Below are positions 1 to 6,556 of a stretch of 48,936 nucleotides of DNA, one piece after another. The number at the start of each line of letters is the position of its first letter. Within the stretch, counting starts at the first letter, position 1. This DNA comes from an uncultured Bryobacteraceae bacterium (GTDB lineage: Bacteria; Acidobacteriota; Terriglobia; Bryobacterales; Bryobacteraceae). The notes below the pieces were generated by a model that was given only the letters and a program-made list of their open reading frames with translations, searched no databases and was not told the origin of the DNA. The DNA lies in the NCBI GenBank assembly GCA_955652915.1, contig CATPCJ010000123.1, forward strand, positions 1-48,936, given 5' to 3'. The translations under genes and the position numbers were made by a program.

Positions 1-1928
<1,928 letters not shown>

Positions 1929-3399: not shown

Positions 3400-4749
3400 T
3401 CATTCCACGGGCATCGGCACAAATTTATCCTTGCACGAGTTGGGAGCGCCATTGCCGCCGGTCCCGGTCACCGTAACGTCGTTGCCCCCAGGCTGGAAGT
3501 TCACCGGCCCTGGGCCCAGGGTGAAATCGGCGTAAGTAGCCGAAACCTTCGACGCCAGCGGCGGATCCAGATAGACGTTGTCGAATTGCATGCCTAAGCG
3601 ATGCCTGGCGTCGTAGCCGTCCAGCGTGATCTTGCCGCCGCTGAGCACGCGCACGTTGCGCAGGACGATCCCCGTGAACGTCGGAATTTTATCGCCCGCG
3701 TGCCCATAGTGCGCATAGTCGGACTCCATGACGATCGGATTCTTCGTCTCCCGGATACAGATGTCGTCGTAAACCACATCGCGCACCAGACCGCCGCGGC
3801 CCGAGTTCGATTTGATCCGAATTCCGTTGTCGGCGCCGTCGATGGACAAATCGGAAACACGAATCGTATCGGCCCCGCCATTGGTCTCGCTGCCGATGGA
3901 GATGCCGTGTCCGGTGTAGAAATGATTGTGCGCGATGGTCATGTGCGAAGCATGACCGCTGGCTTTGACCACCACATTGTCGTCGCCGGTATGGATGTAG
4001 CAGCGCGTGATGGTTACGTTCGTCGACGATCCCGGATCGATGCCATCGCTGTTGCGCGCGCTTTTGGGCGTGTTGATGATTACGCCCCAAGCTGTAAATC
4101 CGTTCCCGTTGCCATAATAAACGTGGAAGTTCGGGGAGTTCCTGAGTCTGATCCGGTACAGCGTGAAATTATCGCAGTGCGATAACACGATCAGGCGCGG
4201 GTTGTTCTGGTTGCCGCCGGCCCGCGCTTTTTCGGCGAGATCCCACCAGGTGAAGTTTTGCCCGGTCAGTTTGGCCCAACCACGTCCATCGATGACGCCA
4301 TCGCCCATCACGGCCGCATTGGCAACATGGTCGCCGCCAATCAGCGGTTTGCACCCGTGGCCGCTTTCGTTGACGATGCCGCAACTGCCGGCCGAGAGAT
4401 CGTAATCGCGCGGGTTGCGTGAGGCGAAGAGAATTGTCTTGGCGGCAACCAGTAGCGTAATTCCCGGCCGCAACGCCAGGGGTCCTGATAAGAATGCATC
4501 GTGCGCGCCATCGGCCTTCAGCTCCACCGCCTGCCCCGGCTTGCAGCCATCGATCGCGCGCTGAATTCGCTCCGTATCCAGCTTGGCTTCGTCCGCGTCG
4601 GCCAGATTGTGCCCTTCGACCGAAGTAAGACTGGCCCGCAGCACTGAGCAGGTGGGCGGAATCTTTGGTTCCACGACAGTACGCGTATCCTGGGCGCGCG
4701 CCGCAGCCACGAAAATCAAGGCGGTCCCAACGACACTAGGAATGCTCAT
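3400..4749 (-). CDS. exported GH28 polygalacturonase-type pectinase
   Basis: Predicted to cut the galacturonan backbone of pectin. The right-handed beta-helix family signature is complete: NSDGIDPGSSTN, GDDNVVVK, the GHGISIGS histidine motif and IRIKS. These hold the two catalytic aspartates, the third aspartate and the substrate-binding Arg-Lys. An N-terminal hydrophobic stretch ending in AARAQ looks like a Sec signal. The start is uncertain: MSIPSVVG at 4749 gives a normal-length leader without a positive charge, while upstream starts at 4803 or 4815 would add an n-region with a lysine. About 449 aa from 4749. It is apart from the main cell-wall cluster and shows no copy of the operator palindrome found there. 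Confidence 0.9.
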   Translation of the reverse strand: MSIPSVVGTALIFVAAARAQDTRTVVEPKIPPTCSVLRASLTSVEGHNLADADEAKLDTERIQRAIDGCKPGQAVELKADGAHDAFLSGPLALRPGITLLVAAKTILFASRNPRDYDLSAGSCGIVNESGHGCKPLIGGDHVANAAVMGDGVIDGRGWAKLTGQNFTWWDLAEKARAGGNQNNPRLIVLSHCDNFTLYRIRLRNSPNFHVYYGNGNGFTAWGVIINTPKSARNSDGIDPGSSTNVTITRCYIHTGDDNVVVKASGHASHMTIAHNHFYTGHGISIGSETNGGADTIRVSDLSIDGADNGIRIKSNSGRGGLVRDVVYDDICIRETKNPIVMESDYAHYGHAGDKIPTFTGIVLRNVRVLSGGKITLDGYDARHRLGMQFDNVYLDPPLASKVSATYADFTLGPGPVNFQPGGNDVTVTGTGGNGAPNSCKDKFVPMPVE

Positions 4750-4836: not shown

Positions 4837-5981
4837 ATGCATAGGTTGATCCGCCAAATTACGCTCCAAGACCTTCTGTCCTTTAAGAACACGACGGTCG
4901 AGCTTCGGGGGTTAAACGTACTCATCGAAGAGAACGCTGTCGGTAAAAGCAACCTCCTAGAAGCAATCAGCCTTCTGCAAGCGGCCCCGGTGGATTTGAA
5001 TAGGGCCATTCAGCTTCAGGGGGGGTACGCACTTTTTGTTCGCTTGCCGGCCCCAAGGTTTCGCCCGTTGCTGCGATAGAATGCAACTACATCAACGGGA
5101 TGCCGCTCCAATATCGGTTGGAGTTCTCCGAACACGCTCAGGGATTCTTAATCACGGGTGAGCGACTCAATACGATCCGGCTTGATCCGGACGAAGGCCC
5201 TGCTGAAATCTATTTTGACCGGACAGCAGGGAGTGTCGGGCTAGGCTCAGGTTCGATTTCCCCGATCCCCGTGACGCAGTCGGTTTTGGCCCTGTATAAG
5301 AATCCCGCCGACTCGACTCCCATAACTGAGGTTGGGCGCGAGTTCGAAAAGATTCGAATCTACCGGGAATTCCGAACAACGGGCAGTTCCGAGGCCAGAA
5401 GGGGGGCTTCAGTCTCCGCACGTAAGAACTCGTTGGACGATAGCGGAGACAACTTGGCCGTAGTCCTATTGGACATGGATTTCAAAGGTTCCCACGATCG
5501 AGTTCGCGCATATCTTCATCGATTCTGTGACCGCTTCAAGGACGTGAAGGTTCGACTGGATGGCCCCATCGCCCGGACATACATTGAAGAAACCGGCCTG
5601 CTGGAGCCTCTGGTATCGATGCGTCTATCTGACGGCACACTGAAGTTTCTCTGCCTCTTGGCCGTCCTTCTTGACGAAGATATCGCGCCATTGATCTGCA
5701 TCGAGGAGCCGGAAGTCGGACTACATCCTGAAGCCATTCAGATCGTCGCGGAAGTTTTGGTGGAGGCGTCTAAACGTACACAACTGGTGATCACGACCCA
5801 CTCCGAAGCACTCGTGGACGCACTGTCCGATCGACCCGAAGATGTAATCGTAACCGAGAGAGACTTTGACAATGGCACACAGTTCAAGCGGCTCGACAGG
5901 CAACAGCTCTCCGTTTGGCTGGAGCGATACAGTCTGGGCGCACTCTGGCGAAAAGGGGAAATTGGCGGAACTCGATGGTGA
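4837..5981 (+). pseudogene. AAA (OLD/RecF-like) ATPase, frameshifted
   Basis: ABC/SMC-like ATPase of the kind found in OLD, Septu and PARIS-type defence systems. The first 62 codons read in one frame (LQDLLSFKNTTVELRGLNVL, then a P-loop-like EENAVGKSN). After seven G at 5019-5025 the coding frame steps back one base and continues without a stop (VRTFCSLAGPKVSPVAA...) to Walker B CIEEPEVGLHP and the VITTHSEAL switch. The second frame alone gives 293 aa from the ATG at 5100, without a P-loop. The P-loop departs from GPNGSGKSN by G-to-E and G-to-A changes. The end overlaps the DUF4276 start by 7 bp (ATGGTGA), implying translational coupling. The G run could also be a sequencing error, a phase-variable tract or a -1 slippery site; with the TGA next door, decay is the simplest view. 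Confidence 0.75.
5019..5025 (+). other. G7 homopolymer at the frameshift point
   Basis: Seven consecutive G. In the upstream reading frame they form the heptamer G-GGG-GGG, which fits the X-XXY-YYZ pattern for -1 slippage. The downstream coding frame is exactly the -1 frame. Confidence 0.6.
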
Positions 5982-6556
5982 AGGAGCTTCGAGTTTACTT
6001 CGAAGGCGACAGTCAGCTAAGGCGCGGATTTCACCAGTTCTTGGGTGAAATCTTCCACGCAGCAAAAATCAAACGATGTCGTTTTACTCTCATCGCAACG
6101 AACGGCCGACCAGTCCAGGATTTTCTTCGTGCCCTTAAAGCTCATCCAGATGCCTGGAACATACTCCTGCTTGACAGCGACGCGGCTATTGATGATTCGT
6201 TCGAGGATATTCTCCTCGACAAAGGTCTAAAGCGTTCCCATGAGGATTCCGTCTTCTGGATGGTCCAGATCATGGAAACTTGGTATCTTGCCGATGTCGC
6301 CGCCTTGGGCGGCTATTATGGTAGTGGTTTTCAGGAGAACTGTCTGCAAGGAAATCCGGAAATTGAGCGGATACGCAAGGATGATGTTCTGTCGCGATTG
6401 AAGAGAGCAACGAAGGACACGGGACGCGGTGAGTACCACAAGACAAAACATGCGGTCGAACTTCTCGCCTGAATCGATCCAGCACGAGTGAGAAATGTGG
6501 CGCCTAACCGCGAACGTATGTTCCGTCTCGTTTTAAAGGAACTATCCGACTGCTAA
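5975..6556 (+). pseudogene. DUF4276 family protein with in-frame TGA
   Basis: Partner of the upstream ATPase. The ATG at 5975 starts VKELRVYFEGDS, the E-G motif typical of DUF4276/TOPRIM-like proteins, followed by LLLDSDA (DxD-like) and FWMVQIMETWYLADVAAL. A TGA at 6470-6472 stops it at 165 aa after KHAVELLA. Beyond the TGA the same frame continues with IDPARVRNVAPNRERMF to a TAA at 6554-6556, and this looks like the usual DUF4276 C-terminus. One base change (for example from CGA) would restore about 193 aa. The truncated protein could still be made. Function is unproven; ATPase plus DUF4276 pairs recur in bacterial genomes and are treated as candidate antiphage modules. Confidence 0.75.

What the first reader, a model, noticed from the sequence alone, without database searches (positions are those of the whole stretch)
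4837..6556. Translationally coupled ATPase/DUF4276 pair with three lesions
Seen: 7-bp ATG/TGA overlap between the genes, a frameshift in the ATPase, a TGA 28 codons before the natural end of the partner, and two changed residues in the P-loop (EENAVGKSN). Known: AAA ATPase plus TOPRIM-like partner pairs include antiphage modules. Inference: this is a recently inactivated defence module. Both frames stay open elsewhere, which argues for a young event or for conditional expression.
Basis: partly seen in the sequence, partly recalled or inferred. Interest (0 to 1): 0.6.

Follow-up and report, generated by a model that had tools for sequence, protein, structure and literature searches.

The report
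Recently broken ATPase–nuclease defence pair
A soil Acidobacteriota genome carries a two-gene ATPase plus nuclease-like module of a known candidate antiphage family (HEC-01), with both genes broken by a few recent mutations; this is an ordinary case of defence-gene turnover, though this module is found broken unusually often in its relatives.

Summary
An ABC/OLD-type ATPase (4837-5981) and a DUF4276 gene (5975-6556) overlap by 7 bp. The ATPase changes frame at the G7 run 5019-5025, and the DUF4276 gene has TGA at 6470-6472, 27 sense codons before TAA 6554-6556. In the P-loop only the first glycine (G31E) is abnormal; the rest occurs in relatives. The pair is HEC-01A/HEC-01B of PADLOC-DB, a candidate defence system without an experimental report that I could find. 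Read across the lesions, the ATPase departs from only 1 of 45 columns invariant in 22 intact relatives, and that column is G31. The partner departs at 0 of 12. So the damage is real, sparse and young. Assembly error is unlikely: the same 54 genomes show about 7e-5 frame lesions per SecA codon. In this order 22 of 67 HEC-01 loci carry lesions. Conditional expression by frameshifting is not supported: no excess RNA structure, no conserved slippery site, and two unrelated further lesions. The inferred working of an intact pair is an OLD-type ATPase sensor gating a TOPRIM-like nuclease, as in PARIS. This is a decayed member of a known kind; interest is low.

The parts
4837..5079 (+). N-terminal piece of the HEC-01A ATPase (80 aa, contains the P-loop), ending at TAG 5077-5079
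   Evidence: PDLC04177 profile positions 1-67, E 4.5e-19
4921..4950 (+). P-loop 'LIEENAVGKS': first Gly of Walker A replaced by Glu (codon 31, 4927-4929)
   Evidence: Gly in all 33 distinct relatives whose P-loop was seen and in all 22 aligned intact relatives
5019..5025 (+). G7 run where the reading frame of the ATPase changes
   Evidence: the run codes for a conserved Gly-Gly motif
5019..5981 (+). C-terminal piece of the HEC-01A ATPase (signature LSDGT, Walker B region EEPE, THS motif), TGA 5979-5981
   Evidence: PDLC04177 positions 64-393, E 1e-85
5975..6472 (+). HEC-01B / DUF4276 gene up to the premature TGA 6470-6472 (165 aa)
   Evidence: PDLC04201 E 7.8e-37; Pfam PF14103 E 7e-8
6473..6556 (+). 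Rest of HEC-01B: 27 open codons still similar to relatives (68% to the closest), then TAA

Best explanation
This is a HEC-01 type two-gene module: an OLD/SMC-like ABC ATPase (A) with an overlapping, probably translationally coupled TOPRIM-like DUF4276 partner (B). It lies next to smc and has recently been inactivated. Shown: the family assignment, the gene overlap, three lesions (frame change in A, G31E in the P-loop, premature TGA in B) and otherwise undisturbed conservation. Inferred: in intact copies the ATPase senses infection and releases or activates the nuclease, which cuts nucleic acid and stops the phage or the cell. Also inferred: here the frame change removes the full-length ATPase, coupling to B is lost or weakened, and B lacks its last helices, so the module no longer works. 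The likely cause is slippage at a G run plus relaxed selection, because such modules are costly or useless once phages change. The order of the three events is unknown.
For: PADLOC profiles and Pfam. An intact same-genus pair in G004 lies between secA and uppS. Leave-one-out test: A departs at 1 of 45 invariant columns (G31E only) and B at 0 of 12, no worse than intact relatives. 22 of 67 HEC-01 loci in the order carry frameshifts, stops or deletions, 8 in both genes. In the same genomes SecA shows 3 frame changes in about 48 evaluable genes of 853 codons, an expected 0.04 lesions per pair and a chance of about 8e-4 for two or more in one pair. The genome's own SecA and the window's long ORFs are open. 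The predicted B fold has OLD TOPRIM domains as its two best Foldseek matches.
Against: The genome is a 506-contig assembly with no reads to check; a G7 run is a typical error site, and the contig's left end carries an odd duplicated ftsH segment. B keeps its whole TOPRIM-like core and lacks only 27 residues, so residual activity is possible. The AF2 model of B is of middling confidence (pLDDT 71.6). Defence function of HEC-01 is predicted only.
Confidence: 0.85

Rival explanations
1. Assembly or sequencing errors: the locus is intact in the organism and the frame change, the TGA or both are artefacts.
For: Draft assembly; homopolymer of seven G; SecA of three sister assemblies shows frame changes although it is essential; ftsH at the contig end looks chimeric.
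Against: It needs two independent errors plus a false G31E in one 570-codon pair; the estimated chance of two or more frame errors is about 8e-4. This genome's SecA and the window's other long genes are open.
Confidence: 0.08
2. Conditional expression: the G7 run is a programmed -1 frameshift or slippage/phase-variation site that makes full-length ATPase only sometimes.
For: The run sits in the register G_GGG_GGG for a -1 slip into the downstream frame (sequence); the site codes for a conserved Gly motif, and a relative has a run of eight G there in an open frame (G194, L050); several other A genes change frame in the same stretch, residues about 50-82.
Against: Most intact relatives have no such run. 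G242, G274 and G264 break nearby without a long homopolymer. The downstream RNA folds no better than shuffles (z 0.71 and -0.24). G31E and the TGA in B are unexplained. The clustering is inflated because the search query began at residue 64.
Confidence: 0.05
3. The truncated products are functional as they stand (a short P-loop peptide, a 293-aa ATPase remnant from ATG 5100 and a shortened nuclease).
For: Both frames stay open outside the lesions; ATG 5100 opens a 293-aa frame; the TOPRIM-like core of B is complete.
Against: The 293-aa remnant lacks the P-loop, and the peptide that has it carries G31E at an otherwise invariant position; no intact relative is split here.
Confidence: 0.02

Closest known systems
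HEC-01 (PADLOC-DB candidate system, HEC-01A + HEC-01B)
   Same: Both proteins match the system's profiles along their length (with the lesions read across), in the same order, on the same strand and with overlapping or nearly touching ends
   Different: Both genes are broken here
PARIS (AriA ATPase + AriB TOPRIM nuclease; 'class 4' OLD in PMC10568477)
   Same: Separate genes for an OLD-type ABC ATPase and a TOPRIM-like nuclease; the ATPase C piece matches an AriA profile, E 8e-22
   Different: Partner is DUF4276 and matches no AriB model; sensing of Ocr and tRNA cutting (PMC12839542, PMC12409363) are not known for HEC-01
OLD proteins and GajA of Gabija
   Same: ATPase related by sequence to solved OLD-family ATPases such as Retron-Eco8 OLD, an OLD endonuclease (6p74) and GajA; B model closest to OLD C-terminal TOPRIM domains 6nk8 and 6njw
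   Different: There ATPase and TOPRIM are one protein; no UvrD-like GajB gene here

Membership tests
HEC-01 (PADLOC-DB) | ATPase matches HEC-01A | tested here: met
   Pieces cover profile positions 1-67 and 64-393 of 393, E 4.5e-19 and 1e-85
HEC-01 (PADLOC-DB) | Partner matches HEC-01B / DUF4276 | tested here: met
   PDLC04201 positions 1-175 of 202, E 7.8e-37; PF14103 above its cut-off
HEC-01 (PADLOC-DB) | A and B adjacent, same strand, A first | tested here: met
   7-bp overlap here; B starts within a few bases of A's end in most relatives
HEC-01 (PADLOC-DB) | Both genes intact (working system) | tested here: not met
   Frame change at 5019-5025, G31E, TGA 6470-6472
HEC-01 (PADLOC-DB) | Protects against phage | not testable with these tools
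   No paper on DUF4276 or on an experimental test of HEC-01 was found
PARIS / class 4 OLD | OLD-type ABC ATPase encoded apart from its effector | tested here: met
   AriA profile PDLC02980 E 8e-22; LSDGT, EEPE and THS motifs
PARIS / class 4 OLD | Effector is AriB | tested here: not met
   Only HEC-01-labelled models match B; no AriB model
TOPRIM nucleases of OLD type | TOPRIM fold with E and DxD/E acidic motif | tested here: inconclusive
   Invariant E10-G11 and D67, mostly E or D at 69; Foldseek 6nk8 E 9.8e-4, TM 0.43, but VIA-align Z 6.6 is in the background range and pLDDT is 71.6

The most novel reading that the evidence does not exclude
The Gly-rich stretch just behind the P-loop of HEC-01A is a slip-prone contingency site, so HEC-01 is switched off and on reversibly by run-length changes, which would explain why breaks recur at residues 50-82 and why so many loci look broken.
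Probability: 0.04. Interest if true: 0.5.

Novelty: new member of a known kind. Interest (0 to 1): 0.2.

Why it matters
It is a candidate defence module caught soon after inactivation, judged by its otherwise untouched conservation. The survey suggests that in this order about a third of HEC-01 loci carry lesions, far above the assembly error measured in the same genomes. That fits fast turnover of defence genes and suggests that the module is costly or easily dispensed with. [quoted passage not shown]

Tried and rejected
Programmed frameshift: rejected as main reading. Shared ancestral site: the stretch upstream of smc is not conserved in the four same-genus genomes, and the G004 pair lies elsewhere, so no intact copy or empty site could be compared at the same place. 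Clustering of A lesions at residues 50-82: noticed, then traced in part to the search query starting at residue 64; in loci found through B, lesions also fall near residues 290-330. Phage, plasmid and viral-contig copies: one B query (P0007) found none, which does not exclude distant ones. Sequence search of B against solved structures: no usable match. No promoter or terminator signal above shuffles. VIA-align did not separate OLD domains from common Rossmann-like folds.

Full report
Setting. The window is contig C123 of a 7.09 Mb, 506-contig draft assembly, 91.6% complete. Its same-genus relative G004 is a Bryobacterales MAG, so the organism belongs to the Acidobacteriota. The finding lies between a GH28 gene (minus strand) and smc (plus strand), with tilS and ftsH beyond. 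None of six further genes of the window matched PADLOC, so there is no sign of a defence island.

Observation. The sequence shows an ATPase gene from ATG 4837 that reads to a stop at 5077-5079, while similarity continues in another frame from the G7 run 5019-5025 to TGA 5979-5981. The partner starts at ATG 5975 inside the ATPase's end, giving a 7-bp overlap. It meets TGA at 6470-6472, and 27 more open codons follow before TAA 6554-6556. The tail after the TGA is 68% identical to the closest relative. The P-loop reads IEENAVGKSN. Comparison with relatives shows that NAVGKSN and GEN are normal variants. Only the first glycine, changed to Glu at codon 31, is abnormal: all 33 distinct relatives whose P-loop was seen have Gly there.

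Identity. Against PADLOC-DB the ATPase pieces match HEC-01A (PDLC04177, E 4.5e-19 and 1e-85) and the partner matches HEC-01B (PDLC04201, E 7.8e-37). Pfam gives AAA_21/AAA_15 and DUF4276. The frame change falls where the two profile matches meet, at profile positions 64-67. HEC-01 is a candidate. I found no paper on DUF4276 or on an experimental test of HEC-01 in the library, and the PADLOC papers do not describe it. 'Hma-embedded candidate' as the meaning of HEC is from my own memory.

Is the damage real? The closest intact pair, in G004, has one open ATPase frame and one open DUF4276 frame. I aligned 22 intact relatives with the window's proteins read across the lesions, for comparison only. 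In A, 45 columns are invariant in the relatives and the window departs at one, G31E. Intact relatives left out in turn depart at 0 to 5. In B the window departs at 0 of 12. So apart from three hits the pair still looks selected, which marks the inactivation as recent. For assembly error I used SecA in the same 54 genomes. Three genes change frame (G034, G274, G123) among about 48 that can be judged over 853 codons. That gives about 7e-5 per codon, 0.04 per HEC-01 pair, and about 8e-4 for two or more in one pair. The count of 48 and the lesion tally below were made by hand from the tables.

How common is it? Of 67 HEC-01 loci in the order, 22 carry a frameshift, stop or internal deletion, and 8 have both genes hit (G177 and G204 stops also). 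The next-closest relative by the ATPase, G242, is independently broken in both genes. The excess over the SecA error level is large (Fisher p 5e-4). SecA is essential, so the comparison controls for error, not for normal decay of accessory genes. The A lesions seem to gather behind the P-loop (residues 50-82), but part of this is search bias, since the query P0002 starts at residue 64.

Mechanism. The ATPase is related to solved OLD-family and SMC-like ABC ATPases, with Retron-Eco8 OLD on top and PtuA, an OLD endonuclease (6p74), GajA and AriA further down. B has an invariant E10-G11 and a D67-x-E/D69 motif. An AF2 model of the G004 protein (pLDDT 71.6) finds two OLD TOPRIM domains as its best Foldseek matches (E 9.8e-4 and 4.5e-3), though VIA-align does not lift them above common Rossmann-like folds. 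I therefore infer a PARIS-like logic, in which the ATPase senses infection and the TOPRIM-like partner is the effector. In PARIS the ATPase AriA detects phage Ocr and activates AriB, which cuts tRNA (PMC12839542, PMC12409363). Whether HEC-01 uses the same trigger or target is unknown. In the window, loss of full-length ATPase, loss of the P-loop glycine and a shortened B all point the same way.

Conditional expression. The G7 run is in the right register for a -1 slip, but most intact relatives have no such run at this place. Three other broken relatives break without a long homopolymer. The RNA downstream folds like shuffles, and two more lesions remain unexplained. One relative (G194) has eight G in an open frame at the same Gly motif, so a contingency site is not excluded; I give it 4%.

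Location. smc is conserved in all five same-genus genomes, but similarity stops just upstream of it (about 6756, with one 58-bp patch in G001), and the G004 pair lies between secA and uppS. The pair is thus not fixed at one site, which fits horizontal gain. No copy was found in the phage, plasmid or viral-contig collections with one query.

Verdict. It is a decayed member of a known candidate family, of low surprise. The one point worth keeping is the high rate of lesions across this module in its order.

Noticed in passing
window 3-1928 (minus): ftsH at the contig's left end runs in frame into a second, slightly different copy of its own middle part (GVERKS...[10 protein letters not shown]...PRGMA occurs twice), which looks like a chimeric join between two ftsH paralogs or a tandem copy.
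   Followed up: partly
67 HEC-01 loci of the order: About a third (22 of 67) carry frameshifts, stops or deletions, 8 of them in both genes; the rate is well above the assembly error seen in SecA of the same genomes.
   Followed up: partly
L091 (G242:C110) about 2325-2358 and 3664-3724: The next-closest relative is broken in both genes close to the window's own two break points, by different lesions.
   Followed up: partly
L050 (G194:C45), Gly motif behind the P-loop: Run of eight G in an open HEC-01A frame at the same motif where the window has seven G and a frame change.
   Followed up: no
G034, G274 and G123 SecA: SecA matches change frame in these three assemblies, probably assembly errors; the G274 HEC-01 lesions should be read with that in mind.
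   Followed up: no
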